Of a DNA stretch of 64,000 nucleotides, positions 11,260 through 41,132 are shown piece by piece (the stretch's first letter is position 1; each line of letters starts with the position of its first letter). The notes beneath the pieces are model-generated. The model saw only the letters and a program-made list of their open reading frames with translations, made no database searches and had not been told where the DNA came from. The DNA comes from Nectonema munidae (taxonomy: Eukaryota; Nematomorpha; Nectonematoida; Nectonematidae): the NCBI GenBank assembly GCA_030549495.1, contig JAUIRK010000947.1:252001-316000 (forward strand), written 5' to 3'. The position numbers were made by a program, and so were the translations under genes.

Positions 11260-13272
11260 TTGAATGTACAGAGTCTTCCGAGTAAGTATGATAGTTTATC
11301 AGTATTAGTTAACAGTTTGAACTCTCTTTGTGACAGAAAGGTCAGTGTAATTGCACTCCAGGAAACTTGGACTAAACCAATTTTTAGTAATTTGTTCAAA
11401 TTATCTAATTATAATTTATGCTTGAAGGAGGGCTTTCTTTCTACTCACTCTGGGCTTGGTTTTTACATCAATAAAAATATTAACACTAGAATTTTCAACC
11501 CTATTAATTGTGATGGTTCCTCTTTTGCAGTACCTCCTTTGAAATCTTTTTTTTGGAATATTCATCTGGTGTAAGAAAAATATATATTCACAATATTTAT
11601 CGGCCTCCTCGGAAAGATTCAGAAAATATCGATTTGTTTTTTACAGAATTTTCTTCATTTCTCTCTTTTCTCAATCAACGTGATGATAACATTTTAGTCA
11701 GTGACTTCAATTTTGATCTTTTAAAAATCAATAGTTGTAAATCTACTGAGGATTTCATAAATATTATTTTATCATATTCTTATCAACCCCTAATTTTTGA
11801 TGTTACGCGTTTTGAAAGTGGTACCCTACTAGATAATTTTTTTCATGAGTACAGATAACAAAAGGTTTAAGTCTATTGTTATTGATAATCATATATCAGA
11901 TCATTTTCCTATCTTACTATGTCTTACCCATTTTAAATAAAATGTAAAAACGTATTTTGACAAGTTTAATCTTGAATCATTTGAAAGTTTTGTTGTTAAT
12001 TTTGATTGGTTTGCTTACTTAAAAAACTATTTAGACTATCCTGATTTATATTTTGAACTTTTAAAAAACAAGTTGAAGTATTATGTTAATATATCAAAAG
12101 AAAGATTTGAAATTATAAAAATGGATAAATATTCCTTCTCATTCAATCCTTGGTTAACACCTGAAATCCTTAAATCATTGAAAATAAGGGATAAGCTCTT
12201 TAAAAAGCTTAAAAAAAATAATAATGATCTTTTACTTAAATAGAAATTTTTGTTTTATAGAAACAAATTAAAAGTGTTAATAAAAAGTTTGAAAGTGAAA
12301 TATTATGAAAAGTTGTTTGATTCAAATGATGATATGAAAACTATGTGGAAAAAGTTAAATAGTTGCATTGGTAAAGGTGATGAAAACAAAATAACAATAC
12401 GTGATGGAAAAGATGTTTTTTCTAATATTGAAGATTTAATTGATAAGTTTAGCAAATATAGTGCTCCTAAAAATGAAGATGTGCATAGTTCTTCTAATAA
12501 CTTTCATTCATACTTATCGAAAATAATAAGTAATTTTTCTTTCACAAAAATAACATTGAATGAGGTAATTAACTCTGTTTCCAATATAAAGCCCAGTAAA
12601 GTAACTGATATTTTTGGACTTTAAGCATAGACTTAAAAAGTCCTTTAGATGTTCTAGCTAGATTTTTCTTATATGGATTTAATTCTTGTCTTGAATTTGG
12701 GGTTTTTCCTAAAGTGTTCAAATATATTAAGGTGATTCAAGTTAGTAAAAGTAAATCCAATGACTCCATTGATAACTTTAGACCCATATCTATCATTCCA
12801 ATTATTTCAAAAGTTTTTAAGAAAGTCCTTTATTCTCAGTTATTCATTTACTTTAATCCTCTCATATATGAGTTTCAGTTCGGATTTCGTAGAAATTACT
12901 CTGCATCTTTGCTTCACTCATATTTCATTAATAAAATACAGTATTATTTAGATTCAAAGTTACTTTCAAACTAAATTACTATGGCCTTGATAACTTGCCC
13001 CTCAACTTTTTTTCTTCATATACGATTGATCGTGTACAATCAGTTAACATAGATGACTGTTCGCATCTTTAATTAGGATTGAATCAGGCGTGCCTCAAAG
13101 TTCTATACTCGGGCCAATTTTATTTTCTATTTACATAAATGATATAGAAAAATGTGATTTTCAGATTCGTTTTTTCTTATATGCTGATGAGCTCACCCAA
13201 GCTCAACTTTTTCTCATAATGGTATTGAAAAAGCTATTCTTCAAAAAATGTGGAAATAAGTTTAAACCATAG
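11260..13272 (+). pseudogene. LINE-A ORF2 (AP-endonuclease + reverse transcriptase), broken
   Basis: Decayed polyprotein of a non-LTR retrotransposon. The endonuclease part shows MNVQSL and ALQETW near the start, NIYRPP near 11603, SDFNFDLL (GDFN-like) near 11702 and ISDHFPILL near 11898; these are the blocks of the APE-type endonuclease. The reverse transcriptase part shows FRPISIIPIISK near 12777, FQFGFRRNYS near 12873, GVPQSSILGPILFSIYIND near 13087 and LYADELT at the catalytic site. The last changes the usual Tyr-Ala-Asp-Asp to Ala-Asp-Glu. The frames switch several times (11260, 11553, 12250, 12714 and 13090 start successive segments). The 3' third of the RT and the 3' UTR are missing or fused to the repeat at 13237-13372. 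It fits the Jockey/CR1 assemblage; the exact clade is unresolved. Confidence 0.75.
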
Positions 13273-13372
13273 TAAATAAGATTTTCTAAAAGTTTCATCA
13301 TAAATCTTCATGTAGATTTTTTTAATTCGATAAAATCACTTTTTTCTAGTTTTTTTATTTTATCCGACATGT
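13237..13372. repeat. segment shared (inverted) with 28555-28690
   Basis: About 135 bases match the reverse complement of 28555-28690 at what looks like about 90% identity. At 28.6 kb the segment lies just inside the terminal sequence of the second MULE copy. Here it directly follows the LINE-A RT frame. It may be the damaged left TIR of that MULE, or LINE sequence present in both places. Confidence 0.75.
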
Positions 13373-13440
13373 TTTTTAAATTATTTATCAATCTTTTAAA
13401 GGCAACTTTTTTTAACATTTAATTTTTAAAAGGACCAAGG

Positions 13441-14344
13441 TAGGTAGGTATGTATGTAGGTAGAGATATCAAAGCACTTTCCAAATTTAATCGATGTGCT
13501 TGCAAATTGCTTGATGGGGGTTGAAGAGAAGAATGCAAAGAAGAATGTTAGGAGTATTCTAGAAATAATAAATATATATAGAGAAGGATAATCGGTTTTA
13601 TTGTGGGCTGAGGTGAAGGATGGGTTCAATAGTGCCTATCAAGGCGGAGAGTAAGTTTAAGAGTTCTGGGTAAGTAATGATGTCGCTTAGATTAGTGGGA
13701 AAGTGGCCAAGGGTTGAGGCGCATGCATTGATAAGTTTGTGTCGGTGTGAGATGAAGAATGGGCAAAGGAAGGCGAGGTGATATGGTGTTTCGAAAAGTG
13801 CTTTGCAGAACCGACACGTCATGTTGTCTGAGAGTTTAATGCGAAAAAAGTAGGTTTTGTAGGGTCAATGACCCGAGAGCCACCTAATAATAGATCTCGA
13901 TGGAGTGTATTTGTGCGAAGCCCAAGATTGGTGTATGGTATTGATGTTTGATATGTGCGAAAGCAGGGTGTTTGTGGAGTTGGTGAGGGAGTTTTGCCAT
14001 TGGTTTTGAGTGGGCATGGAAATGTTGCGCAGTAAGACGTTGGGGTGTACTGAGGTCAAATGTGTTATGCAGGGTCTTGATAAAGTTCTTTTGGCGAGAT
14101 GGTCAACATGCAGGTTTTCATGTATGTTGGAGTGAGCGGGGCACCAGAAAATGGAGACAGTGAAAAGAGTTGAGAGGAGTCGTAGTTTTGAGAACAAGAT
14201 GGAAGCAAAGAAAGAACGTTTTTGATAAGGTGTAGATCGCGCGTGATGTTCAAGGAGTCTGTATAGAAATGAATATGAGTGAAACGTGTGAAGGTATTGA
14301 TGTGTTGTGTGATCTGATCGCATGAGGCGATTAAAGCTTGACAT
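13441..14344 (-). mobile_element. LINE-B 3' fragment with RNase H domain, 12-bp TSD
   Basis: A 5'-truncated non-LTR retrotransposon inserted on the minus strand. The identical 12-mer AAAGGACCAAGG flanks it at 13429-13440 and 14345-14356. The coding part reads an RNase H domain: FYTDSL with the catalytic Asp near 14265, then after a frameshift FWCPAHSNIHENLHVDHLAK, which matches the family's W-x-P-G-H-S-G-I-x-G-N-E-x-A-D-x-L-A-K block with some substitutions. An in-frame TGA at 13865-13867 separates this from a C-terminal segment with CRFC and a following HLAFLCP, a Cys/His cluster typical of I/R1-like LINEs that carry RNase H. The 3' end is a short tetranucleotide array (TACC units on the minus strand, 13441-13464). 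It is preceded by GAAAGTGCTTTGATATCTC, which is also found at the 3' end of the SINE at 28961-29148. Confidence 0.85.
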
Positions 14345-14356
14345 AAAGGACCAAGG

Positions 14357-14683
14357 AAGAATATAAAATTATTTATTTCTTTTATAACAATGTATTTTAA
14401 AATCTAGTTTTTACTTTTAATAAAGTATCTAGTTTTAAAAAATTATATTTGAGAAAGTATTTTGTGTTCTTCACTTTTAATAGTTTTCCTTTTTAATTCT
14501 TATAGATTAAATTTTAAGTTAAAGACATATTGTACCAAGCCAGCTATGCTTTTCTATCTTTTCTATATATCTTATAAACACATAATGTGTTAATAATATA
14601 CAGTTTTACATACAAACCATTGATAGATCCTATATTAATTAGCTTGTTTCATATTATCATCTTCATTGCTATCCTACTCATTC
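14357..14683. other. AT-rich spacer between LINE-B and MULE-1
   Basis: No frame or repeat recognised. It may belong to an older element, possibly MULE-2, into which both neighbours inserted. Confidence 0.35.
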
Positions 14684-14954
14684 GGGCGTGACTAATTTGT
14701 GCCAACCTCAATTTTTTAGTGCCAACCTCAAGAAAACTTTATTTTTAACACATAATTTTAATCTTATATATTAAATAATACTTTAAAACTAATATTCATT
14801 TAATTTCAAGAATGTTCTTTGCTTCAATTTTTTTTAATACTAATTAATAATGTTTTTTTCAAGTTTTTTGATTTTTTCAGGCATTTTTATACAAACTTAA
14901 CAATTCAACTAAAATTTAAATGCTCCTTCGTTTCGGTTATAATCGGAATTACAA
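14684..14954. repeat. MULE-1 left terminal inverted repeat
   Basis: Inverted match to 21208-21472. It contains two close copies of GTGCCAACCTCA-type motif near the outer end (14700 and 14720), possibly transposase binding sites. Confidence 0.9.
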
Positions 14955-15387
14955 AATTTATAGTAATATTTTAAAATACATATTTTAATGAATTTTATAA
15001 AAATTATAATTTATGTATTACTTTTGTAGTATGTTTTCCAATTCTTTATTAATATTCGCGTTGATTTTGATAATTCGAATATTAAAAAAAGTAGATTTAT
15101 TAAATTTGTTTCTTTTTAAGTAATTCTTTATAAATCTATCTCAATTATACTCTTCTTTATCTATTAGAAAACTTTTACCTTCTACCTGAGTTCAGCCTAT
15201 TTTAAGAGTTATCAGTTTTTATTAAATATAAAAAATTTGCATAGTTATTAGTAAATAATAGTTTTTTTGTACATAATACTTCAGATTTTTTTATATAAAG
15301 GTACGTTATGGTGTTATCATTTAGTAGGCACACTTGCTGCTTTGTGACGAGAGGAGGTTTGATGTTTATCTAAATCCACTATTTGAC

Positions 15388-15631
15388 CAGGGCGGATCTA
15401 GATGATAATAATTTACTCAAACGAGATTTAAAATTTTTTCTTTAAAATAAATTTTCTTTGTTAATGAATGCGTACCTATTATTTGTATTACATAAGCAAC
15501 ATTTACATATTTCATGTTATGGTTCTTTAATACAACTCTTCCTTCACAAAATGAAAGTAATTCTGTTTGAACTACACACTGATATTCTTAAAAATCGGTA
15601 AGGGAAAAGAAGACCCCCTGGATCCCTGCTG
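15388..15631. mobile_element. hAT-like MITE (244 bp) nested in MULE-1
   Basis: Left end CAGGGCGGATCTAGATG; right end reverse complement CAGCAGGGATCCAGGGGG. The flanking octamers TATTTGAC (15380-15387) and TATCTGAC (15632-15639) differ at one base, as expected for an aged 8-bp hAT target duplication. No coding capacity. The ends resemble those of the MITE at 60854-61127. Confidence 0.6.
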
Positions 15632-16510
15632 TATCTGACTAACTCTTTAAACGTTGTATCGTATGAATGCATAACATAAAAAAAAGTTGGTACAAATGCA
15701 TAACAAAAAAAAATTCTACAAATACTTAGCTCTATATAAATGTTATTTATCCATTTTTAGGTGTAATTGAACAATTCCAGATTGTTTTAAATCTTTCTCA
15801 GAACGGACAGTTGAAAAATAAAATTTAAGAGGAATGTACCAAAGGTTAAGTTGAAGAAAGAAAATTCGATATTTACGTTTCAATAAGCGATTTGAACTTT
15901 GTTTTTTTTAAATAAATTTAAGTTTTATTTAATTCCTATTAACATAACATTTCAAAAATTAATATGCTAGCAATTTAAATCGACATCTGAATTTTTTACA
16001 GATGAATCTTGTTTTCGGTTTATTTAATCAATAGTGATACAAATGGATCCCGTCTCATTAAGAAAATTTTTTACAATCTTAACTCAATAAAAATCAAAAG
16101 GAAATAAATATACACAAATATATCAATGTTATCCTTAAAGTTGATGTTTCTCACAAATTTTGATAAAGAGTTTTATATAACAAGATAAATTGTAATATTT
16201 TTAATGAAGTTATATTCAATATATTTCTTGATATATGAAATATAATTATATATATCATCGTCACATATTTTGATATCTTTCAAAACCTCAAGAGGTGGAA
16301 CACGGGAGACAACCCCTCAAATTTTTTGTTATCTTCTGAAATGTCAAAAGGATGAAGATATGCGACAAAAAAAGTATTTTATGCATTCAATAAACAGAAT
16401 TTAATGAGAGAAGAAAATATCAAAAAATAATGGATTAATATAGCAAATTATTAATTAGCTCGCCTCTTTATTTTTCGTGGGATGCTCAAAGTTTTTCTTT
16501 TTTCCGGTTT

Positions 16511-17980
16511 TCAAGCAACGTTAGGAGACTTTTTTAGCATTAATTTCTTATTAGTTGAAGATGTAAGTTTTTCTGAATTATTGTTTAAAAATTTTTGAAA
16601 ATATTCCTCCTGATCATTCTTGCTCATATCCCATTCTAGTTTTGTAAACACTTTGAATTGAGAACTTTCTGAAATTTTAAGGTCTCCATACCCAAACAAG
16701 GCATATTTAACTAAATATTCTTGATATTTTACTTCACTGTGTAAACTTTCAATCAGATCAATCAGTTTTTTACTTTTCCACTCTATATTTGATTTTAAAA
16801 CATTATTAATAACTTCACAATTATTATTCTTCCAATTTTTAGGAACAATTCCTCTTTTTTGTTTAGGTTCAAAAATGTAGTTTTGGATTACTGGTATAAG
16901 ATTTCCTTTCAAGTATTTACCTATCGTTTTCGAGTATTGACCGATTATTTTCTGTTTAAATCAATGTAGTTTTGAGCATTAGTCAAACCTGAATCTCCTA
17001 AAAAGCGAATTTAAGAATTTTTTACTATTTTTATCATCCATGCCTATTTTATTTTTAACATATCTCAATATATTCTTTTCTAGTTGCCTATGACATAATA
17101 CTAAGGGTACATCGGGAAAAAACAATTTGATTGCTTTAATTATCGCTTTTTCTTGATCACTGCCCAAAACTAAATCATCTAAAGATAATTCCAATTTGAC
17201 ATTTTTAAATATTATAGATAAATGAGAAAAAAATTTGGAATAAGATTCAAATTTCCCATCCCAATGTAAAAATAATGGACCAAGAAAAATTGGACAGATT
17301 TCTGTGAATTTTCTTTTTAAATCCCCATCATTGAAAACAGTGTCTGTCACAAAATAGGGACCTAAATTAAATGTCCTATCAATTCCCAAAATAGTTGATC
17401 CAGAAGAAATAGATTTTTTTATATGTAACAATTGTGTATCTGTATAGCAAATAAGGCAAGGAAGCCCGCGTGAAGTTATATTCATTTCCTTTATAAAAGG
17501 ATGTCCAGCAGTCATCATTGTAATAATATTTTGAATGCTATCTGCAATATTGTTGTTATAAATAAAAGATGAATTTGCTTTTTCTTTGTTGTATTTCAGG
17601 TTACGAATATACTTTGAATCCCTCAGGGGTTCACTTTCAGAATCAAAATAACTGTATATTTTTTACAAGACTTGATCGTTTCTAACTGAGACAAAGCATG
17701 TTTTTTTGTTACTACACTTGTTCTAATATATTCTTGATTTGTTTTGGCATTACCATGATGTGAGACTGTAGTCGGTTTAAATCCTATATATTCCCACAGA
17801 TATTTTTGGTCTTCATTATTCTTATAGTTTTCAATCCATGAAATTCTTCTCCTATAATCAATCTTGCGCTTTAGATTTGAATAATAATGTACTAATACAA
17901 CAATTTCTTCTTTTTTTGGTTGAGGGTTTAATGGAATAAATTTGTTATTATGTATCTTAACAAAAATATTTTTTCTTTTT
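16511..17980 (-). pseudogene. MULE-1 transposase (MULE DDE), broken
   Basis: In intact relatives this protein cuts and joins the element ends in the nucleus. The catalytic triad of the MULE family can be placed. First Asp: GIDRTFNLGPYF, near 17381. Second Asp: LGSDQEKAIIKAIKLFFPD, near 17155, followed by VLCHRQLEKNI. Glu: NNNCEVINNVLK, near 16815. Upstream, about 17520-17980, an N-terminal part reads LWEYIGFKPTTVSHHGNAK in another frame. The clear frame runs 17518 to 16979; stops follow, and the same frame reopens at 16912-16511. The GIDRTF Arg replaces the more usual Gly seen as GIDGTF in the second copy. A frameshift separates the transposase from the upstream OTU frame, so it is unclear whether the original was one fusion protein or two ORFs. 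It is inactive as it stands. Confidence 0.8.
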
Positions 17981-17982
17981 TT

Positions 17983-19230
17983 TTAAAATATATGTTCGTT
18001 GTTTTTTCTTATGAACTCCATTTTTTGCGAATTTTGAGTCCAAGCACCACAAACATCAAAAAAACCTTTCTTAAAGTTATCTTGTCTAGCGATATAATAC
18101 TTATTTTCCAAAAATTTAGAAACATTTTTGTTAAAGCATTCCAAGGGTGAAACCAGTCTTTTCACTATTTGATTACTAGATAAAAACCTGTTATTTAGTG
18201 GTTTTATAAGACTATCAATTCGTGAGGGTAACATTTTTAAAGTATTAGATTTACTACTTTCTGATAGGTTTTGACAGTAGTCATGTTCTTTCAGGAAAAA
18301 ATTAGGAAAACTTGTACAGCTAGTTTCATTAATGTCACTTTCTATTTCTTTTGGACATGAAAATTTAGAATTCTCAGTTAAATATTTAGAAAAATTTGGA
18401 TTACCCATGAGAACAATATTTTCAACTATCAATACAAAATGATTTGGTGTCCAAAATTTAGGTTTAATCAGGCCTAATCTGCTCCATAAAATATTTATAG
18501 TATTTTTGCTGCTTTTACACTCAAGAGGCTCAAATGTGGTATTCAAGATTTGGGCAGTTTTAACTGTTTTTGTATAAATTTGGAGATAAACACTTCTTAT
18601 ATTATGACCTATTGCAGAAGCTGCTACTTTCATTGTATAAGCAGATAACCATGAATAGTTCACGCAGCAGTTGCGTAATTCGTCTTGAATGAGAAGAGAA
18701 GCATATTCTATATTTTAATTTATCTGACAAATTTTGTATTTTTGAAAGTTAGAAATAAATTCTATAGAGGTTATTATCAGTCTTAAATATAATGATAACG
18801 TCTCATCACCCTTAAGAAAAATAGAAAGGCAATTAAAAAAACAGTTGCCATTTCCTGTAGACTTGATAGTTTTGAATCCTGTCTTAAAATCCGTTTTACG
18901 TAAAGTATCTAAGGAATTAAAATCAATCTCTACATCCTTGAAAGATTTAAAGTCAATATTTGAAGATTTGCTCCTTAAAAATATTTTTTCTATACTTGCT
19001 GCTTCTTGACTTCTATTGATGTCAAATGCTTTACTTAATCTTTCTAGAGCTTTTGAAAAATCGTATTTCCCATTTTCAGTTTTACATAAAGAGCAAATAA
19101 AAGGCAATGCGGAATCAAAAACATGAATTTCATAATCATAAATATTTTCACATTTTAAATAAAAATAAGATAAACAATTATAACACTTTATAGATTTCCT
19201 TTGTATAATAAATAACTTTACAATTTTCAC
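17983..19230 (-). pseudogene. MULE-1 zinc-finger + OTU cysteine-protease protein, one in-frame stop
   Basis: The N-terminal part has paired cysteines (KCYNC, then YLKCENI, then FICSLC), as in the second half of a PHD-type finger, with the usual His replaced. About 100 residues on comes an OTU (ovarian tumour) domain of the deubiquitinase superfamily. Its nucleophile loop reads STGNGNCFFNCLSIFL (Cys near 18842), with the usual Asp of D-G-N-C changed to Asn. It continues with GDETLSLYLRLI, WLSAYTMKVAASAIGHNI and the catalytic-His block FWTPNHFVLIV (His near 18440). The frame runs from 19230 to 17983 and is broken only by a TAA at 18715-18717. The MULE transposase follows on the same strand, and the same order occurs in MULE-2. 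Its role in the element is unknown. OTU proteases cleave ubiquitin-like conjugates, so protection of the transposase or host manipulation is a guess. Confidence 0.75.
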
Positions 19231-21207
19231 ATGAAAGATTCATTTGTATCTAAATTAAAAAAATATGTAAAATAACATTATTTTAAATTTATTGAACAGC
19301 CAAAGATAAATATAGTTAATGCCATTATAGCAATATCACCAACTAATTAATTAATTAACGCACCAACTATAATTATTTTTAGTTTAATTTATATACGTTT
19401 TTTAAAAGAACAGGTTTTATTTTTGATTAACTTCAGACGAAAAAAATTAACGAATCCTTTGGTTATAATCAGTCACTGAATTATTTAAAAGCAGATGCAT
19501 ACAAATTTTTTTCATAACATAATTTTTATAAAATAAAATTTGTTTCTTTTGATAAAAGAAAATTTCAAAGGTTAATGAAATGAATATAAACTATTCCGAT
19601 CTTTTAGCTTTATTTCATTCTATTTAGTTTAAAACGTTGATAAATATCATATTATGTTTAATTTATTTGAAAAAATAAGTTTTGTAAAAGTTTTGAGATC
19701 TTGGTTTATTTTAATTTTTCAACTAAAATAAAAGGTAAATAAATATTTTTCATTCTGAATAGTTAAAAAATATTAAAATACATTGCATTATTTCTAATTT
19801 TTTGAAATACTTCAGGATTGTTTATTTCGGCAAAAAATGACACCCAAAAATATAGATACGAATCAATAGAGTATTAGTTATAATAAATATATGGGTTTCG
19901 TGAATTTGTTAAATCAGTATATACTTCAGACCGATTTTCAATAAGGTTTTATGGCTAAATTATGATTGGATTAAATCCAATTATGGTGGAGAATAAGATT
20001 ATACTAAACCAAATCTCATAAATCCTTAGCCACTCTTTGTGAAAATTTAATTTAGACAAAAATCACTTAATATTGAGAACAATATAAAATGGCATGGACG
20101 ACAATGCAAAGCACACACAGAAATTTGAAAGATATTAGCTTAGCAATATCTAGCAATTAGCTTAGATATTAAATATTTCAAAAAATAAAATAATACCGTG
20201 TTTAGATTTGTAAATTCATTATATTTTTATTGTATTTCAACTCTCAATTGTTTGTGTCAAAACTTACATTTATGTCACGTTAATTGTTAACATCGACAAA
20301 TAAATTTTCCAAAGTTTTATATTAATTCCTTGCCCTTGTCGTAGATAACTTATTGAATTATCTGAATTTTACAATAAAAAATCTACGCTGGTAAAAATAG
20401 AAGTAGCTTGCATCGAATAGATTTTATTAATTGTCGGTATCTAAGGGATGAATAATCTTCCATACCTGGACAATGGGAAGAATTATTACAATCGGTATTC
20501 GATAGTTGTCTCAAAAGAACAAATTAACTTTTGATTAATTTTTGTGCCATAAGAATTATATGTATAAAATTTGGCTTTTTATCACACAGACTTAATATGG
20601 CTTAAAAGCTTAATACTTTGGCTAAAATCAATCGTTACTGGAAATTTTGCATTGTATTTAATTAAATATAGAGAGTTTGTATTTTTTTCGAAAAAAATAG
20701 GAAATTTATGTAAAAAATTGAAAAAAGAAAATCTATTTTTTTATTGATATTAACAACATATTTTGAAGTTATTAGGAAAAAAACTTATAAATATAATTTA
20801 AAATGTCAATATATATTAATTAATCTAAAGGAGAAACTTTATTAGGTTTTGGCATTGTTAAACGCCTATATATTAACAACAAAGAAAAAATTATCTCTTT
20901 ATTTTCTATAAATTATTTGCTTATATTATCTATCACAATTTTACGAATTTTGAAAATTTTATCATAAAAAAATTCCAACAAAAATTGTTTAATGTTTAAA
21001 ATTTTATTTAAAATAATAATATTGTTAAATCATAGTTAATCTGTTCGTTACATCAATTAAATTATTTATTCACTAACCAATATAATGTTAGAAAATAAGG
21101 TCATGAAATTTAGAAATTATAAATGAGTTATAATCACAACAAATATTATTAGATAAGAAAAAAGATAGTATTTATTATTAAAAGTTAATTTGAAAGCCTT
21201 ACTAATT
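19231..21207. other. MULE-1 5' non-coding interior
   Basis: AT-rich interior between the coding region and the right TIR. No frame is recognised; it presumably holds the element's promoter, which I cannot delimit. Confidence 0.45.
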
Positions 21208-21472
21208 TTGAAATTCCGATTATAAACGAAGGAGCATTTAAATTTTAGTTGAATTGTTAAGTTTGTATAAAAATGCCTGAAAAAATCAAAAAACTTAAAA
21301 AAACATTATTAATTAGTATTAAAAAAAATTGAAGCAAAGAAAATTCTTGAAATTAAATGAATATTAGTTTTAAAGTATTATTTAATAAATAAGATTAAAA
21401 TTATGTGTTTAAAAAAAAGTTTTCTTGAGGTTGGCACTAAAAAATTGAGGTTGGCACAAATTAGTCACGCCC
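21208..21472. repeat. MULE-1 right terminal inverted repeat
   Basis: Inverted match to 14684-14954. The outer end is GGCACAAATTAGTCACGCCC, next to CATTCGGG. Confidence 0.9.
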
Positions 21473-22883
21473 CATTCGGGCTTTTCTTTCCCTTTCCCAT
21501 TCTTTTCTTTGACTTAAGAAAGTAGCTTTAAGACCACTGACATATTTCTTAAATAAATACTCGTAAAAAAGTGCATTTGTAATACCTGATAAAAAATATT
21601 TAATTAACATATTTGATTTTGTTGAAAAACTTACAATTATATTCCCAATCAGTTAGATTTTAATAGCTTGGTCCTTCACTGAAATGGCAATACTAAGCAT
21701 ACTTTCTATATTCATAACTTGTGTGTTAACATACATATTTCTGTTTATTTAGATTCCAGTAAATTGTTTGTTTGAGTATATATTTTTTCTGCTCTTCAAA
21801 CTAAACGACTTAGGTATCGTTCTAAAGCCCTAAACCGTTCAAAAAATAATATCTGCATTTCTTTTTTGAGTATTCCTCGTTTTAGTGCATCAACCTAGGT
21901 TTACTTCTAGAATTCAGTCGTTGCGAAAATATCAAAATTCGCACAATTTTACGTCCTTGTTTCTACCACATCCGATGCCCTTATATCCTGCAAACTGATT
22001 TGGGTGTTACTTATCTGCATTTTGTTTATTTTAACCGAGTAGATATTACATAGATTTTTTCTTATAATAATAAATAAATATTGTTTAACTTTTTCCTGTC
22101 TTATTGTAAAACTTGTCTGATATTAATTCATCTTTTTATTACCCTCCCTTCCCCCCCCCCCCCCCCTCCCCCTAAAATGTGATGCGTTTTGGGATTACCT
22201 GTTTTTATACATTTATTTTATTAGGTTGTTTTTCTTATATTTTAAATTAAAAACTTATTGGCATTATCTTTATTTTTTATATTGAAACTCCCACCAAACC
22301 CTTCAGAAAATATATAGTCGTGCAAACCCGTGTGGTTTAATCCACAGCAAATCAAACATAGACAAATACACTGCGTATTGATAAATAAAAAATTGACTAA
22401 ATATGTTAAAATATTTTTTTTATTTTATAATATTCGAAAGTTGATTATAAAAATTGTTCCTATAAATAAAAAATGTTATACATTTTTAAATTTTTTACAT
22501 TTTTTTATTTTAATTTAACAAAAAGCATATATATAAAGCGCAGTTTATTGTTTTTAAGTAAAATTAAACAGAAGAAACTACATCATTAAAGAACTGAAAA
22601 TCGCTTTTTGAAAAATATTAAACCAGCATGTTCATATTTTTATAATATATCTTTGTAATAATGTAGTTGAAAGTAATAACTCTTTATTGGAATAATTTAA
22701 CTTTCCTGAGTCAGTTACTTAGATAATAAAAATAGATACCTGTGGAGGCGTGCTTGTAATAATTCTTTACAATTAGTTATAAATGTATTTTTTGATAATA
22801 TATTATAAATTTTGTTGGGTTTTGATATACTTACACTTTAACTTTACTATTTTAGGAGTTTTAACTGTTTTGTTCACTTTAAC
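21473..22883. other. non-coding stretch with poly-C tract
   Basis: No gene recognised. A C run of about 18 lies at 22149-22166. The stretch lies directly upstream of the MULE-2 coding region and may be its 5' part. Confidence 0.4.
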
Positions 22884-24240
22884 TTGAAAATGCTCAGTTG
22901 TTTTAAATGCCACAGTGAAATAAAAGATGAGGGTATTTTTGTTCTAAATGTTACAAGCGTTATGATTTGGAATGTGAAAATCTTTTCAGTTTTCAAGCAA
23001 ATGTTTTTAATTCTACATTGCCATATATATGCATTAAATGCAACCAAGTTGATGAGAAATACAACTACCTTGGGGCACTAAAGAGACTTGAAGTTTCATT
23101 TTCAAATATAGAAAATGAGAAAGCAGCTAGAAGAGAAAATTTTTTTTTGAGAAATACTGAAATAAAAAAAATATATTCAAGCAATAATATTCAAAACTTC
23201 ATTAATGACAATGTTTCTTCCTATCTCCTATATACACGAAAGGTGATGGAAATTGCCTATTCAATTCCATATCGTTATTTTTTAACGGGGATGAATCTTT
23301 TTCTTTATATTTTAGATTGATTACTGCAATCGAATTAATCCTCAATTATGAAGAACTTGTATCTTGTAAATTAAATCCTGGAATAGAAAAGGTTTCACCA
23401 ACAATTTTAGAAGAGAGTTTCAAATGTTGCTTAAATAGGTCATGGTCATCCGCTTATATGATTAAAGCGGCTGCATCAGCGATAGGAATGCGTATTAAAA
23501 GTATTTATCCTTATATGAATGGAACACATGATTAGGTAGCGGAAATATTAAATACTATTTTTATGCCTATTGGAGAAATAATAGTACCTCAAATAATGCA
23601 TATCTTGTGGACATGTACCCATGAACAAATATCCAAGTACTGGACTCCAAATCATTTTGTTTTTCTGATTTCCACTCAAAATGAGTACAGCAATGAAATG
23701 AAAAAAAACTAAGCCAAAGCCCGATTCACAGCATTTTTAATTATAAAATAACACCTTCTCCCTTAAAAGACCATACCTATCTTGCCTCTAATGAAGACAG
23801 CACTGAATTTATTGAATCTTTAAATATTTTTAATGGAAAACAACAACTGAAATCATTAAGTAACAAATTTTTATCTAGCAGGGTAGTTATAAACGAGCTC
23901 TTTTCTTCTGATTTCTGTTATTCAGACGTTATTCCAGACTATTTTATAGAAAATGTTTATTTTAAAACAAAAATAATTCATAAAGATAAAAATGATCAAA
24001 GAACTTTCTTTGATAACTTCGGAGTTTGGACTTAAACTACACAGAAAAAGGTGTATTTTTTAAACTTGAATAATGAATTGTTGTTTATTAAAAAAAATAT
24101 GGAACTTTTTGGATATATAAAGAACAAAAATTTTATTTCAATGAATCCACAGCCGGATAATGCAGAAATTATTACATTGGTGCATTATTATGCAGAATAA
24201 TGTGAACAGAAAGTTGAACATTGTCTCCCTAGTTATTTGT
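22884..24240 (+). pseudogene. MULE-2 zinc-finger + OTU protease protein, broken
   Basis: Same protein family as the minus-strand copy at 17983-19230, here more degraded. Paired cysteines (SCFKCHSE, then after a frameshift CSKCYKRYDLECEN and YICIKCN) form a more complete PHD-like finger than in the other copy. The OTU nucleophile loop KGDGNCLFNSISLFF lies near 23239-23285 and keeps the canonical Asp-Gly-Asn-Cys. It is followed by GDESFSLYFRLITAIELI, WSSAYMIKAAASAIGMRI and the His block YWTPNHFVFLI near 23640. Several stops and frameshifts interrupt it. The downstream transposase follows on the same strand, so domain order is conserved between the two copies. The intact DGNC in this copy supports the OTU assignment for both. 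Confidence 0.7.
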
Positions 24241-24251
24241 ACATGGAATAG

Positions 24252-24419
24252 AAACCATCGTAGTATACAGGTTGAAGATGAATCATCGTAGTATACAGGT
24301 TGGTGATGAATCATCGTAGTATACAGGTTGGAGATGAATCATGGTAGTATATAGTTTGGAGATGAATCATCGTAGAATACAGGTTGGAGAAGAATCATCG
24401 TAATATACGGGTTGGAGAT
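24252..24419. repeat. 28-bp minisatellite, about 6 units
   Basis: Imperfect tandem copies of a 28-base unit containing ATCATCGTAGTATACAGG. The array sits where the MULE-2 transposase N-terminus should begin. A 28-base period is not a multiple of three, so the array has scrambled the frame. Confidence 0.85.
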
Positions 24420-24469
24420 AACACGCAAGTTGTCTACCCGCGTTCAACCGTACAGGTTATGAGATATTT

Positions 24470-25847
24470 ATTTATTGGAGTATATTGGAACGAGGCCTTT
24501 AGAACGTTCTCATCATGGAAATTTAAAAATGAATACTCAAGAATATGTGAGAACCAATCCAGCAATAAAGGATCGTGTATTGGAACAATTGAAACAAACA
24601 AAATCATGTAAAAAATTTTATTCTAAAATGCTTGAATCTCAAAAAATATACCCAGAACCTCAAAAGTCATAAGAAATATAAAATATATATCTGAAAAAAA
24701 ATTCATTACATGCATATAATAACAATATCGCCGATAATATACAAAGTATATTATTATCTATGCTAACAACTGGACACTCATTTTTGAAAGAAATGACTCT
24801 TAATACTAATGGAATTCCTAATATAATTTGTTATACGCAAAATCAGCTATTACATCTAAGCAAATCTATCAAATCTGGGTTAAACATTTTAGGAATAGAT
24901 GGCACGTTTAATCTAGGCCCTCGCTTCGTTACCGTCACAGTTTTTGACAACAAAAATCTCAAAAGAAAAGTAAAGAATGTTGTACCTATTTTTCTTGGTC
25001 CCATATATTTACATTGGGATGGAAAGTTTAAATCATATTCAAAATTTTTCTCGCATTTATCACTTATATTGAACCAGGATTTCAACTTTGAACTTACTAC
25101 AGATAATTTAATCATAGGTTGATGAAGAGAAAGCTTTAGTTAAGGCTATTAAACATTTTTTTCCACATACTATTCTCATATAGTAAACATTAAAATTTTT
25201 AATGTCCAAAGTCATTTAGAAAAAAATATACAAAGGCATCTAAAAAATAAAATTGGCATGAATCATTGAGAAAACATGGCATTCGTTAATTTAATTTTTG
25301 ATAATTCATGTTTAGTTGATTCTGAAGAAAAGTTTACTGATAAAAATATACAAGAAAAAAATTGGAACTTATTTAACTGAAAGATTATTACCTATAATTG
25401 AAAATCATGTTTTTATCCCTAAACACAATTTCAAATATTCGACAGATAAATGGAAAAATAATAATTGTGAATCGATGAACCATGTACTCAAATCAAACAT
25501 AGAATGGAAGAAAGATACTAGATTTAATTGAAAGCCTGTATACCGAAGTAAGATATCAAGAAAACTGGATAAGATGTTCCCTTTATGGTTATGGAAATTT
25601 AAAAATATCAGATAAATGTAATTTCTATCAAAAATCATAATCCAAGTGTGATCAAATGAACAAAAAAGAAAGAGAAGAATACTTCCAAAATTTTTTAGAT
25701 ATTAAACCATCAAAAACCGCAATTAACCATAACAAGGGATTAATAGTTTCAACAAATAGACAGCTTATAGTAAAAAATGTTCAAATATTGCTTCAAAACC
25801 TGGAAGAAAAATATTCAGCCTTAAAAAAAGAACATCAAATAAGGTAA
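24470..25847 (+). pseudogene. MULE-2 transposase (MULE DDE), broken
   Basis: Homologous to the MULE-1 transposase along its length. The N-terminal part reads SHHGNLKMNTQEYVRTN near 24510. The core starts MLTTGHSFLKEM at 24760 and contains LGIDGTFNLGPRF (first catalytic Asp). The second Asp region, DEEKALVKAIKHFFP near 25126, is offset by a frameshift, and the Cys-His part after it is damaged. The Glu region NNNCESMNHVLKSNIEWK lies near 25460-25510. A C-terminal lysine/glutamate-rich part ends at 25847. Comparing the two copies is the best support for the family assignment. Confidence 0.75.
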
Positions 25848-28554
25848 AGCTTTAATACTATTCATTTTCCTTAATGATTTTTTTATTTAAGACAATTATA
25901 AAGCACTAACTCAGCAAATGTAGTTTTCTATGCGCAAGTCAGCCAAAACAAAGTGATATAACTTCAATATAAAAGTTTAATTTTAATATGTTCAATTTTT
26001 TATATAAAATTTTTTAAAATGTTCTTTATATAAAATTTTTTAAAATGTTCTTTATATAAAAATTTTTTTAATGTTCTTTATATAAAATTTTTTTCAATGT
26101 TGTTTATTATATGTTGATTGAAAACAATAAAATTTTGAAAAGTTTGATTATAAAAATTTTCTAAATTTGGAAAACAGAACTTATCAAAATTTTTTTAAAA
26201 CATTTAACTTGGTTATAACTGTATCCATGATTAAAAGAACGAATCCTTATAAAAAATTATTAATGTGCGAGAAAAAAATTCTATTTTTCCTAAACAAAAA
26301 AATTCTTCATATCTGCTATAAGCTAATCGGATAATGTTGCCGAATCCGTGTATGACCTCTTTCAATTTGGTAATTTTTTGAGAATTAAAATGAGAAAAAC
26401 TAACTGAGTGAAATTTAAAAGGATTGGATCTGTTGTGATGTTTTGCAAAAATGTTTTACCATATTGGATTCTCTTTTAAACATAAAAATAATGCGATCTA
26501 ACATGAATGTCAAAAATATGCTCTCGTATAATAAGCATTTCTATACTAATAACAAAAAAGTTCATCTTGACTTTGCGCATCCTAATATAAATACATAAAT
26601 TTTCTCTTTTTTAACAAAATTTTGTATTAAATAAAAATTTATTGACATGAATTAATTTTTATTTCATCTCTCATATTTGTTAATTAATCTTTTTGATACT
26701 TTCGGCATTAATTCAAAAATCCTTTCGTTACATTCAAGATTAGCACATAAATATTATAAATATATAATTTTGATATCACTTAATTGTCTTCATCATTCAA
26801 TTTCTTTTCAAATAAACATTATGAAATTTGAATCTTGTTTTACTTTAGCTTAAAATTGTATTCGATTTATATTTTAGAAAACTTTTTTTTTTGTTAATTT
26901 CAGGCTTTTACAGTTCTGATAAAATTTTAGCATAAATGAGCTAAAAAAGGCATAATTTATTTTATTTCACTAGAAATTCAATTTATAGTATTTTCTGGTG
27001 ATATTTTTGAACTGATTTTATTTTGCAATAATTCCTGTCTAGATTGCTTTTTTTCAATAATTGTTGGAAATAAGCAAGGCCTTTGGATGCATAATGTTTA
27101 GGCGTATAATTATGATATCAAAAAATATAAAATATGACATTGATAAATTACAGTACTCCAGTTTTTTTGAAACTAAAAAGATATTTTAGTCAATAAAAAT
27201 TATTTTATTTTGATTTAACGGAAAATGAAACAAAAAATAATATAAAAAATTTTAATTCATAAAAGTATAACATCAGTTTCTATATTTGAACAAAGTTTAT
27301 TGAAGATAAAAATTTTTGTTTTAATGCTTCCAAAAGACAGAACAAGTATTGCTAAAATCAAAATGTGGATAAAGTAGCATTGAACTGATTTGTAGAACCC
27401 AGATCTAGTATAGGCCTTTAACTGACCCGTAATTATGAGAAAAAAATTATTTGCCTGTGATTTAAAAACTATTTCAGACAAGAAGTCTTTCTTGGGATTG
27501 GAACTTTTGAATGAATAAAAAATTAATTTTTTTATACGAAAAATTACTAAAGATAAAAAGAAACATGTCCTGAATTTTTTATAATGAGTCAATGTAGAGT
27601 CGGATATAATATTTTCAATTTTTTTCAATGGATTTTTGTGCATGTTTTCCATTTCTACCAAGTTTTCAAGGATTAAAAAGTGGCCCTCAAAATCCCTTTG
27701 GATCAAACTCTATCTAAAATTTAAGAAATTCAAAAAAAAATATATTTATTAAATTATAAAAAAATTTAATAATTTTAATTCATCAATGGAAATCACTGTA
27801 GTAATAGATGTAATCTTTTACAATCTTTTAGAAATCAAGATTTGTTCTATTATCAAGCTTTGGAATTTCGGAAATCTGTGAGAATTTTATAAAAATATAT
27901 CCATCGAGAAAGGAAGAGAGAAAAGACGGATATTCTTAAAAATAATTTAATGTTATACAAATTAAATAAACAAAATTAATTTTTGAATTTTAATACTTTG
28001 TGAAATAATCTAAGAGAAAAATATTTGAAAAGAACCCCGTCTCATCATAGTGGGAACAAAAATTATCGAAAATAAACTAATATCCATGCATGAAAATACT
28101 TTTGGGTATATTTTACTATATATATTTGAAAAGTTTCATTATCAATTTTATAAAAAGAATTTAAAAAGATGGGATTTTGTCAATTTAGATTATGACCTGT
28201 GAAAATTGTTATGAAGATTGTTTGTTAGTTTGAGCCAAAAATTAAATTTTTATGAAATGGTATATATTCTTTAGAATTTAAATGTATTTTGTATATGGAT
28301 GCTAAATATAAGAATTAATAGAATATTTTTTCATTCCAAGTTATAACTTGGAAAAGAACGATAAAATAAGAGAAAAAATAAATGAATAAAAATTTCAAAA
28401 ATTTTATAATTTTTAAAATTGAAGTATTTTGGCACAAAAATAATAATCTTCAACCTTAATCTTCAATAGTTTTCAATAATACTTTTTTATCGAGAATTGA
28501 TAATTCCAAATCTAATGTGAAATTGAGAGCAAGAAAGCTTGGTGACCGAAAACA
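25848..28554. other. MULE-2 3' interior, non-coding
   Basis: AT-rich, no recognised gene. It holds the tandem array at 25985-26112. The longest frame (27257-27706, minus) has no recognisable domain. Confidence 0.4.
25985..26112. repeat. 26-27-bp AT-rich tandem repeat, 4-5 units
   Basis: Units of the form ATGTTCTTTATATAAAATTT recur head to tail with small length changes in the T/A runs. Confidence 0.8.
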
Positions 28555-28749
28555 TGTCGGATAAAATAAAAAAACTAGAAAAAAGTGATTTTATCGAATT
28601 AAAAAAAATCTACTTGAAGATTTATGATTAAACTTTTAGAAATTCTTATTTACTATGGTTTAAACTTATTTCCAAAATTTTTTGAAGAAAACTATATTTT
28701 TTACGTAGTTGGCACAAAATACCCTAGTTGTCACAAATTAGTTACTCCC
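28555..28749. repeat. MULE-2 right terminal region
   Basis: The outer 65-70 bases, read as reverse complement, begin GGGAGTAACTAATTTGTGAC and contain TTTTGTGCCAACTA. They resemble the MULE-1 terminus GGGCGTGACTAATTTGTGCC with its repeated GTGCCAACC motif. The inner part (28555-28690) matches 13237-13372 in inverted orientation. This places the right end of the plus-strand MULE near 28749. No matching outer left end is visible. Confidence 0.6.
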
Positions 28750-29162: not shown

Positions 29163-29299
29163 TTTTTTTATAAATTTTTTTACAATACTTTACCTTCCTT
29201 GTTCAACTCCTGGTTTACAACATTTGAATTATGATATTTCTTTTTTTTCCTAGTGTTTTCAAGCTATTTTTTCCTTGTTTTATACAATGAATTTTCTTT

Positions 29300-30644
29300 T
29301 TCTTCTTCTTCTTCTTCTTCTTCTTCTTCTTCTTCTTCTTCTTCTTCTTCTTCTTCTTCTTCTTCTTCTTCTTCTTCTTCTTCTTCTTCTTCTTCTTCTT
29401 CTTCTTCTTCTTCTTCTTCTTCTTCTTCTTCTTCTTCTTCTTCTTCTTCTTCTTCTTCTTCTTCTTCTTCTTCTTCTTCTTCTTCTTCTTCTTCTTCTTC
29501 TTCTTCTTCTTCTTCTTCTTCTTCTTCTTCTTCTTCTTCTTCTTCTTCTTCTTCTTCTTCTTCTTCTTCTTCTTCTTCTTCTTCTTCTTCTTCTTCTTCT
29601 TCTTCTTCTTCTTCTTCTTCTTCTTCTTCTTCTTCTTCTTCTTCTTCTTCTTCTTCTTCTTCTTCTTCTTCTTCTTCTTCTTCTTCTTCTTCTTCTTCTT
29701 CTTCTTCTTCTTCTTCTTCTTCTTCTTCTTCTTCTTCTTCTTCTTCTTCTTCTTCTTCTTCTTCTTCTTCTTCTTCTTCTTCTTCTTCTTCTTCTTCTTC
29801 TTCTTCTTCTTCTTCTTCTTCTTCTTCTTCTTCTTCTTCTTCTTCTTCTTCTTCTTCTTCTTCTTCTTCTTCTTCTTCTTCTTCTTCTTCTTCTTCTTCT
29901 TCTTCTTCTTCTTCTTCTTCTTCTTCTTCTTCTTCTTCTTCTTCTTCTTCTTCTTCTTCTTCTTCTTCTTCTTCTTCTTCTTCTTCTTCTTCTTCTTCTT
30001 CTTCTTCTTCTTCTTCTTCTTCTTCTTCTTCTTCTTCTTCTTCTTCTTCTTCTTCTTCTTCTTCTTCTTCTTCTTCTTCTTCTTCTTCTTCTTCTTCTTC
30101 TTCTTCTTCTTCTTCTTCTTCTTCTTCTTCTTCTTCTTCTTCTTCTTCTTCTTCTTCTTCTTCTTCTTCTTCTTCTTCTTCTTCTTCTTCTTCTTCTTCT
30201 TCTTCTTCTTCTTCTTCTTCTTCTTCTTCTTCTTCTTCTTCTTCTTCTTCTTCTTCTTCTTCTTCTTCTTCTTCTTCTTCTTCTTCTTCTTCTTCTTCTT
30301 CTTCTTCTTCTTCTTCTTCTTCTTCTTCTTCTTCTTCTTCTTCTTCTTCTTCTTCTTCTTCTTCTTCTTCTTCTTCTTCTTCTTCTTCTTCTTCTTCTTC
30401 TTCTTCTTCTTCTTCTTCTTCTTCTTCTTCTTCTTCTTCTTCTTCTTCTTCTTCTTCTTCTTCTTCTTCTTCTTCTTCTTCTTCTTCTTCTTCTTCTTCT
30501 TCTTCTTCTTCTTCTTCTTCTTCTTCTTCTTCTTCTTCTTCTTCTTCTTCTTCTTCTTCTTCTTCTTCTTCTTCTTCTTCTTCTTCTTCTTCTTCTTCTT
30601 CTTCTTCTTCTTCTTCTTCTTCTTCTTCTTCTTCTTCTTCTTCT
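29300..30644. repeat. perfect TTC/GAA microsatellite, about 1,345 bp
   Basis: About 448 consecutive TTC triplets without a single visible interruption. The long poly-Ser, poly-Leu and poly-Glu frames across it are artefacts of the repeat, not genes. The plus strand is all pyrimidine, the type of sequence known to form triplex (H-DNA) and to be length-unstable in other genomes. Confidence 0.97.
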
Positions 30645-30961
30645 ATACAGAGGTCGGGCACAGTTAACTTCTTTTATTTGAAAAAAAGCGACATCTCTTT
30701 ATGATACACCTATATAGAATTTTATTTAGTAAAAGTAGGTGTTGTGAGCGGTTTTGTATATATTGTTTGAGAATAACAATAAGAGAAGATGAGCTGTTCA
30801 TCTATTTTCTTTATAGTCCCACAATAGAGAATGCGAAATGCAACCAGTTTAAATGATTAAGTGTCATTTTTGTGTAAAAAAAGTGATATGTTTTCAGTGG
30901 ATTTGAGATTATGAGAAAAGTTTAAAAGAATGGCATGTGTGTAGGACGAGAAATAATAGAA

Positions 30962-39138: not shown

Positions 39139-40121
39139 TTATTTTATTACAAGATTGATCTATCCTATCTATTGTTTATTTGAATCTAATAATTCGATTT
39201 CTTAACGTAGTTCATGGAGAAATATGCGAAACTTTTTTTCCAATCAATTAAATATCAATTTACCTGGATTTTTATATTAATTCAAGATTTCATCTCAAAA
39301 TGCCACTTTAAATTCAGATTTTTATTTGATATCACTATTTATTAACATAAATAAATTCTAAAAAATTTTTTTTTTATAATGCCAATATAAAAACTATAAG
39401 ATGCTATGGAATCAGGGACGTATCCACATGTGGTAAAAAAAACTCCCTCCAAACTGGATGGAAAGGGAAGAGAAGATTTTAGATGAAAGTAAAAAATTCC
39501 ATTATGCTGAGTGCATAGATGCATTAGGGGGACACATCCTCTTTTTTATAATTATTAAAATTTATTTTTAAAAGAATTTGTGCCTGAAACTCAACCGTAA
39601 AACAATTAAATTAATATGGAAAGTCTACTCTGATAAAGATTTAAAAAAGATGTAAAATTGAAAAAATCAAAATTATTGGTGTAGCGAAATGCTTTTTCAA
39701 CCCTCCCCCCTCCCTGGATGTGCTCAAATATGATTGCAAAATGTAAAAAACAATAAACTTGAAATTATAATAGTTCAAGGAGAGGTAAAACTTCTATAAA
39801 AGTTTGTATTAAGTTTTATTGCATAATACAATAGCAATGTTATTTTTAAGTGTTCATCAGTCTTATCGTAGTCTTTTTTTTATTATAGAAGATTGACCTA
39901 AACTTATTTTGGTATTTATTAATGAAACCAGGATATTCATTTATGTTAAAAGTTTAAATAATTTGAATAATTATATTTTACTATCTGTTTAAATAATAAA
40001 AAATATAAATAAATTTTTCTTTTTTTTAGTTCATTCAAAATTATCCACGCTCACATTTCAATTTAATTTTTTAACCTACATATTATTAGCTTTTTGAATA
40101 TTTAAGGGTTGACATTGATTA
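39139..40121. other. intergenic between hypothetical gene and RNase H2A
   Basis: A CAGGGACGTATCCAC sequence at 39413 and a C-rich CCTCCCTGGATG near 39715 suggest a decayed DNA-transposon end, but no TSD supports it. The upstream region of the RNase H2A gene is a plain AT-rich leader with no recognisable promoter motif. Confidence 0.4.
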
Positions 40122-41132
40122 ATGGAATTCAATTTTGAAAGTGAGGTAGAAAGCTTTCAATCCAACAACAATGAAAATTATATAATGAAGCATTTAAGCA
40201 AATTGGACCCTAAAAAAGAATACGTTTTGGGCATAGATGAAGCGGGTCGAGGTCCAGTTCTTGGTCCAATGGTTTATGCGATAGCAGTCGTGGAGAAAGG
40301 CAATGAGGCTATTTTGAAAGAATTGCAAATCGACGATTCTAAAGTGCTGAGCGAGCAGAAGAGAAAGTCGATCTTTGATGAACTGAACAGCCAAATCTCT
40401 TCTGCTTCTTGCTCTGCTAGTTGGATCGCCAAAGTTTTAACGCCACTTTTCATCTCAGATTCCATGCTCTCTTCGAATAAGTACAATCTGAACACCATGT
40501 CGCATGATACCGCCATCCACTTGGTTGCAATGATTGTGGAAATGGGGGTTAAAGTTGATTCTTTGATCGTTGATACTGTTGGCCAGCCCGGAAGTTATCA
40601 AGCTTTGCTAGAGAAAAAGTTTCCAAAAATTGGCAAGATCGTTGTGACTCCTAAAGCAGATTCCAAGTATTCGATTGTAGGTTGTGCCAGTGTTGTTGCC
40701 AAAGTCATTCGAGACACCCTCGTGAGTGAGTGGAGATTTAAAGAAGAGCATGTAAATGAAATCCTTTCTAAGAGTGAATCCCGTGAAGCTTACCAATGCT
40801 GGGGATCAGGATACCCGAATGATCCGGTCACTAAGAAATTTTTGCTGCAGATAATTCATCCTGTACTTGCTTTTCCAACATTTGTGAGATTTGGATGGTC
40901 CACCGCTTACAAATTGATTGACGAAAAATGTGTTAAAATTGTTTGGAAGGATGCACAAAGTTTCACTAGCGCTAAGAAGAAAAGTAAAAACTCGTTGCCT
41001 CTAACAAGTGACTCGATCAAGCGACGAAAAATAACAGAATTTTTCAAAGTCTATACCAATTCAAAGTCGAATTGCAATGCCACTCCAAACAAATCTTTTT
41101 TGCGTACTCTCACTTCCTTGGATTCGTTGTAA
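40122..41132 (+). CDS. RNASEH2A: ribonuclease H2 subunit A (type 2 RNase H), 336 aa
   Basis: Catalytic subunit of the nuclear RNase H2 complex, which cuts RNA in RNA-DNA hybrids and removes single ribonucleotides from genomic DNA together with subunits B and C. All signature blocks are present in one uninterrupted frame. They are GIDEAGRGPVLGPMVY (Asp39, Glu40), DDSKVLSEQKR (71-81), LNTMSHDTAIHL (123-134), VDTVGQPGSY (Asp151), PKADSKYSIVGCASVVAK (Asp180) and WGSGYPNDP (Tyr231, the residue implicated in ribonucleotide recognition). The four carboxylates Asp39, Glu40, Asp151 and Asp180 form the metal site. Length is slightly above the roughly 300 residues usual in animals; the excess is mainly a basic C-terminal tail after residue 280. 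That tail contains RRKITEFF (301-308), close to a PCNA-interacting motif. The gene is intronless here. The start is the first ATG, 39 residues before the catalytic block. Partners RNase H2B and H2C are not in the window. Confidence 0.95.
   Translation: MEFNFESEVESFQSNNNENYIMKHLSKLDPKKEYVLGIDEAGRGPVLGPMVYAIAVVEKGNEAILKELQIDDSKVLSEQKRKSIFDELNSQISSASCSASWIAKVLTPLFISDSMLSSNKYNLNTMSHDTAIHLVAMIVEMGVKVDSLIVDTVGQPGSYQALLEKKFPKIGKIVVTPKADSKYSIVGCASVVAKVIRDTLVSEWRFKEEHVNEILSKSESREAYQCWGSGYPNDPVTKKFLLQIIHPVLAFPTFVRFGWSTAYKLIDEKCVKIVWKDAQSFTSAKKKSKNSLPLTSDSIKRRKITEFFKVYTNSKSNCNATPNKSFLRTLTSLDSL

What the first reader, a model, noticed from the sequence alone, without database searches (positions are those of the whole stretch)
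14684..28749. Two MULE-type transposons encoding PHD-like finger, OTU protease and MULE transposase
Two diverged copies on opposite strands keep the same order: paired-cysteine finger, OTU domain (G-D/N-G-N-C loop and W-T-P-N-H-F His block), then MULE DDE transposase (GIDxTF, SDQEKA, NNNCE). Plant Kaonashi MULEs are known to carry a different protease (ULP-like). An OTU protease conserved in an animal MULE family suggests the element acts on ubiquitin-type marks. Conservation of catalytic Cys and His in both copies is seen directly; the biological role is inference.
Basis: partly seen in the sequence, partly recalled or inferred. Interest (0 to 1): 0.75.

Follow-up and report, generated by a model that had tools for sequence, protein, structure and literature searches.

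The report
Nested Mutator transposons carrying deubiquitinase-like domains
Two decayed jumping genes, one inserted inside the other, each encode a cutting-and-pasting enzyme fused to a zinc finger and a domain shaped like enzymes that remove ubiquitin tags; this kind of fusion is already on record, but its anatomy and spread had been little described.

The parts
14684..14933 (.). left TIR of element 1 (250 bp, outer end GGGCGTGACTAATTTGTGCC)
   Evidence: inverted repeat; 40 scored TIR places of 126 candidates; termini; 245/250 identity
21224..21472 (.). right TIR of element 1
14684..21472 (-). element 1 (family 1), 6.8 kb, nested in element 2
   Evidence: empty site in family-2 copies L089, L085, L091
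19084..19243 (-). PHD-like finger of element 1 (C-x2-C, C-x2-C, Y in place of His, C, C-x2-C); frame break inside
   Evidence: sister copies read C4HC3
18400..18960 (-). OTU domain of element 1 (limits from the fold match, residues 94-280); Cys133 codon 18841-18843, His267 codon 18439-18441, conserved Asp106 codon 18922-18924; in-frame TAA at residue 175
16511..17662 (-). MULE DDE transposase part of element 1 (D1 in GIDRTF 17369-17386, D2 in SDQEKA 17144-17161, E in NNNCE 16814-16828), broken by a frame change
   Evidence: PF10551 E 0.0018; BLASTP to P0003 E 1e-35 and 4e-16
13237..13375 (.). truncated left TIR of element 2 (outer part lost, abuts RT-like sequence)
   Evidence: 135/141 identical to inverted right TIR
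28549..28749 (.). right TIR of element 2 (outer end GGGAGTAACTAATTTGTG)
13237..28749 (+). element 2 (family 2), interrupted by a retrotransposon-like insert (13441-14344) and by element 1
   Evidence: other family-2 copies are continuous across both inserts
22890..23041 (+). PHD-like finger of element 2 (Asp in place of His)
   Evidence: PF00628 E 0.34 for sister ORF L038, far below cut-off
23145..23690 (+). OTU domain of element 2 (approximate limits, my estimate; GDGNC 23242-23256, WTPNHF 23641-23658), frame breaks inside
   Evidence: PF02338 E 0.0062, below cut-off
24225..24447 (+). 28-bp minisatellite in the coding region of element 2 (copy-specific)
   Evidence: about 210 bp extra against L035-L038
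24463..25847 (+). HHG region and MULE DDE transposase part of element 2, broken
   Evidence: BLASTP to P0003 E 5e-21

Best explanation
Two decayed autonomous-type Mutator-like DNA transposons of two related families, one inserted into the other. Each encoded one transposase protein of about 900 residues: an N-terminal PHD-like finger, an OTU cysteine-protease domain, a middle region, and a C-terminal MULE DDE transposase that acted on long TIRs and inserted the element with an 8-10 bp target duplication. The OTU domain most likely worked as a deubiquitinase on the transposition complex or on chromatin and repair factors at the site, with the finger placing the protein on chromatin or DNA. Shown: anatomy, nesting, copies with TIRs and target duplications, one reading frame in relatives, predicted OTU fold, conserved catalytic residues, lower non-synonymous than synonymous divergence between families. 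Inferred: deubiquitinase activity, its target, the role of the finger.
Against: No window copy is intact, and window pieces are below Pfam cut-offs; so is the L038 frame (OTU E 0.039, PHD E 0.34). Five of 11 paired family-2 elements, and nine places in all, match only from residue 277/278, one of 15 paired family-1 elements (C665) gave no finger/OTU match, and two family-1 copies share an internal deletion that cuts the OTU and removes the transposase: these parts are not needed in cis. dS is near saturation, so the ratio is rough. Within family 1 the variable sites are flat over codon positions (51/58/49, 21 rows), likewise family 2 (11/13/16, 5 rows), as for neutral decay. Asp106 is not at 90% in the 30-row alignment; P0013, P0014 and P0035 differ. 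The H+2 residue after the catalytic His is Val, not the Asp/Asn recalled for many OTUs. The finger lacks His in both window copies. The P0010 model has pTM 0.43 and the ISCth4 superposition is poor (TM 0.29-0.36 by target, rmsd 11-15).
Confidence: 0.68

Rival explanations
1. The OTU domain is a self-processing or polyprotein protease that cuts the finger/OTU part from the transposase, not a deubiquitinase.
For: The fold cluster that holds OTU in PMC10318531 also holds polyprotein proteases of plant viruses (passages); the OTU and later parts are joined by a low-confidence linker in the P0010 model (residues 294-407 under pLDDT 50).
Against: Best structural matches are deubiquitinases. A conserved cleavage site was not searched for.
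Confidence: 0.12
2. The OTU part is a captured host gene fragment (Pack-MULE type) carried as a passenger.
For: Mutator elements often capture gene pieces (established knowledge; passage of PMC6431247). Deletion derivatives without it have spread.
Against: Present in two families only 36% identical, in most TIR-paired copies, and in frame with the transposase in relatives; lower pN than pS between families.
Confidence: 0.05
3. The OTU domain is a non-catalytic ubiquitin- or DNA-binding module.
For: Vertnin, which shares this OTU type, has lost the Cys and is classed as inactive in print (passages); the Cys motif is found in 31 of 42 related proteins, fragments included.
Against: Cys and His are kept in both window copies despite decay, and D-G-N-C and N-H-F-V are at least 90% conserved in a 30-row alignment.
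Confidence: 0.13

Closest known systems
MuDR-6_HM, group 14 of Dupeyron et al. 2019 (Hydra)
   Same: cnidarian MULE with an 'Ovarian Tumour Gene' beside one transposase ORF (Table 1, section 6 read)
   Different: Table gives no TIR, no TSD and no zinc finger; here 250-bp TIRs, 8-10 bp TSDs and a PHD-like finger. Its sequence was not at hand, so the closeness of the transposases is untested.
Ginger1 transposons (Bao et al. 2010)
   Same: transposase with OTU or Ulp1 and sometimes PHD (passages)
   Different: Ginger has a Gypsy-integrase-type DDE and a C-terminal OTU; here a MULE DDE and an N-terminal OTU
Mutator elements with Ulp1 of hydra, lancelet and plants
   Same: Mutator element with a ubiquitin-like-protein protease (passage)
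   Different: Ulp1 there, OTU fold here
Helitron/Helentron OTU proteins
   Same: OTU domain in a transposon protein (passage; P0039 with Helitron_like_N)
   Different: rolling-circle element; no TIR/TSD cut-and-paste anatomy
Rehavkus
   Same: PHD finger in transposase, 9-bp TSD, long TIRs (Table 1)
   Different: no OTU listed; minisatellite there is a family trait near the 3' end (passage), here one copy's expansion
VCPIP1, Cezanne, A20, OTUD3, DUBA and TRABID OTU deubiquitinases
   Different: about 12-20% identity; host enzymes, not transposon parts

Membership tests
Mutator (MULE) superfamily | MULE-type DDE transposase | tested here: met
   window PF10551 E 0.0018, below cut-off; relatives P0003, P0007, P0008, P0012 above it; BLASTP window to P0003 E 1e-35
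Mutator (MULE) superfamily | 8-11 bp target site duplication | tested here: met
   9 of 12 family-1 elements, 3 of 3 family-2. The other three: C665 in a T run, C632 none, and the window copy only CATTC plus an extra GGGC
Mutator (MULE) superfamily | long TIRs | tested here: met
   250 bp and about 200 bp
OTU cysteine protease family | OTU profile over the curated cut-off | tested here: inconclusive
   window pieces 17.5 bits or less against 23.3; relatives P0001, P0002, P0007, P0008, P0010, P0012, P0035 pass, P0003 and L038 do not
OTU cysteine protease family | OTU fold | tested here: met
   predicted model
OTU cysteine protease family | catalytic Cys and His | tested here: met
   both window copies; alignments
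OTU cysteine protease family | ubiquitin cleavage | not testable with these tools
   needs protein
PHD finger | C4HC3 zinc ligands | tested here: inconclusive
   family-1 sister copies C4HC3, L016 PF00628 E 0.0049 below cut-off; window copy 1 has Tyr, family 2 Asp for His; among relatives only P0035 is over the cut-off
MuDR-6_HM group | transposase clusters with MuDR-6_HM | not tested
   its sequence is not held here
Ginger1 | Gypsy-integrase DDE and C-terminal OTU | tested here: not met
   MULE DDE, OTU at the N-terminal side
Helitron | Rep/helicase, no TIRs, no TSD | tested here: not met
   TIRs and TSDs present; no Helitron profile on the ten window pieces scanned

The most novel reading that the evidence does not exclude
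A widespread animal MULE lineage carries its own chromatin-reading finger and an active OTU deubiquitinase in the transposase chain, editing ubiquitin at the insertion site or on the transposase; and this transposon OTU type gave rise to the inactive OTU domain of the vertebrate regulator vertnin.
Probability: 0.15. Interest if true: 0.75.

Novelty: new member of a known kind. Interest (0 to 1): 0.42.

Why it matters
Several unrelated DNA transposons (Ginger1, Helitrons, Mutator) carry Ulp1 or OTU proteases, and I know of no demonstration of why (recall; the passages only suggest roles). Here the fusion is seen with TIRs, target duplications and nesting, in two families with signs of selection, with uninterrupted relatives elsewhere, and with deletion derivatives that spread without it. 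That makes a cis/trans test of the OTU part possible. The shared OTU type with vertnin is a lead on a transposon-related origin of a vertebrate gene.

Tried and rejected
Two separate side-by-side elements: rejected, nested. Pack-MULE passenger: disfavoured. Ginger or Helitron: rejected by DDE type, TIRs and TSDs. An A20-class label for the OTU: dropped, because A20, Cezanne, VCPIP1, DUBA and OTUD3 are tied in Z. Selection within families: flat over codon positions, no signal. Tree of OTU domains (27 rows: two window families and 25 of the 42 related proteins; P0043 dropped because no motif pair was found, 16 others never put in): MULE-type OTUs not one group, placement of vertnin weak (80/77), so single capture and vertnin origin stay open. 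The fold alignments used 29 of the 42 proteins (A4) and 23 (A5). Animal marker Wnt (PF00110): not completed. Own-genome search with P0010: not completed, so whether the 938- and 944-residue open frames at C688 and C142 also hold the DDE part was not checked. Species not identified.

Full report
What is there. The window lies in a 211.6-Mb genome and is itself AT-rich (G+C 22-35% per 2 kb). Its RNase H2A gene (40119-41129) gave 120 listed hits at 37-52% identity; of the 28 with an organism name, 26 are animals and 2 chytrid fungi. An animal host without close relatives in that database is likely; the species was not identified.

Element 1 spans 14684-21472. Its 250-bp TIRs are 245/250 identical and begin GGGCGTGACTAATTTGTGCC. 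A genome search with the left TIR scored 40 places of 126 candidates. They form 15 pairs in opposite orientation; 14 of the 15 hold a match to the finger and first half of the OTU (150 of 271 candidates scored), though the match in C641 carries many stops; C665 holds none. Of 12 pairs with both flanks read, 9 show clear target duplications of 8-10 bp; C665 lies in a T run, C632 shows none, and the window copy shows CATTC on both sides plus an extra GGGC on the right.

Element 2 ends at 28749. Its left TIR is cut at 13237, where RT-like sequence begins. The family has 11 TIR pairs among the scored places, and 3 of 3 pairs with both ends fetched show 9-10 bp duplications. Other family-2 copies run without a break across the points where the window carries a retrotransposon-like insert (13441-14344, 12-bp duplication AAAGGACCAAGG) and element 1. 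So element 1 jumped into element 2.

The protein. Family-1 copies read MNLSCENC...CYNC...H..C...C..C, a C4HC3 PHD-like finger, then an OTU domain with GNGNC and WTPNHF, then a DDE transposase with GID-TF, SDQEKA and NNNCE. Family 2 is 36% identical over 331 aligned positions and has Asp for the finger's His. Copy L038 has one open frame of 562 residues through finger, OTU and middle region. Copy 1 in the window has two in-frame TAA and frame breaks. Pfam scores for window pieces are below cut-offs.

Relatives. A protein search with L038 gave 5 hits; a profile search gave 38, with only the 7991 best candidates scored. Of the 42 different proteins, 35 match OTU, 9 MULE and 3 PHD at E 0.01 or better. 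By motif, 6 of 42 hold both OTU motifs and all three DDE motifs in one protein and one (P0010) also the finger; many are fragments. Seven rows bear an organism name: three molluscs (Mercenaria, Pinctada, Dreissena), two bacterial MAGs, a rotifer (a Helitron protein) and a fish (vertnin). The two MAG rows are probably host contamination, since such bacteria live in clams (recalled; inference).

Selection and derivatives. Between families the OTU shows pN 0.372, pS 0.729 (dN 0.51, dS 2.66, near saturation). Within family 1, variable sites are spread 51/58/49 over codon positions, and 11/13/16 in family 2, as expected after death. Five of 11 paired family-2 elements match only from residue 277/278, as do four further places (77 of 739 candidates scored); the junction was read in one, C642, where finger, OTU and start codon are gone. 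C299 and C632 of family 1 share one internal deletion. The finger, OTU and transposase are thus dispensable in cis.

Literature. Dupeyron et al. 2019 (PMC6446971; passages and section 6 with Table 1) list group 14 MuDR-6_HM, Cnidaria, with 'Ovarian Tumour Gene'. Bao et al. 2010 (PMC2836005; passages) report OTU in Ginger1, cite OTU in Helitrons and Ulp1 in Mutator elements, and suggest roles in repair after transposition. PMC6431247 (passages) names OTU in Helentrons; PMC6875170 (passages) uses OTU for operational taxonomic unit. In the listings of searches I saw no paper on PHD, OTU and MULE in one protein (open-licence papers only; Repbase reports not held; most listed papers not opened). 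Vertnin as an inactive OTU-like protein is in PMC10318531 (passages), whose main text has no word beginning with 'transpos'.

Reading. Most likely a transposase that brings its own finger and deubiquitinase. Which protein it deubiquitinates is unknown; transposase stability, chromatin and repair are all open.

Noticed in passing
P0040 (vertnin of a toadfish) residues 56-245: Vertnin's N-terminal domain aligns to the transposon OTU profile (hhalign prob 98.9, 28% identity) with Cys replaced by Arg; its inactive OTU-like nature is in print (passages), a link to transposons was not found in that text. Tree placement is weak.
   Followed up: partly
window 13429-14356: Retrotransposon-like insert (minus-strand RNase-H-like frame, label recalled) with a 12-bp target duplication AAAGGACCAAGG and a short tetranucleotide-rich tail, inside element 2; empty site in L089.
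   Followed up: partly
window 11941-13236: RT-like reading frames on the plus strand directly abutting the truncated TIR of element 2 (label recalled from motifs, no profile run).
   Followed up: no
window 29290-30670: about 1.4 kb of trinucleotide repeat with open frames in all six directions.
   Followed up: no
window 21473-21481: After the right end of element 1 the 5-bp duplication CATTC is followed by an extra GGGC, equal to the first bases of the element.
   Followed up: no
window 24225-24447: 28-bp minisatellite in the coding region of element 2; sister copies L035-L038 lack about 210 bp here.
   Followed up: partly
G000 C688:161145-162767 and C142:241064-242602: distant OTU families with uninterrupted frames of 938 and 944 residues in the same genome; letters not read.
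   Followed up: no
P0036-P0038: short OTU proteins (P0038 stands for 82 member sequences); P0036 and P0037 have a Cys/His-rich stretch after the OTU; P0036 groups weakly with vertnin.
   Followed up: no
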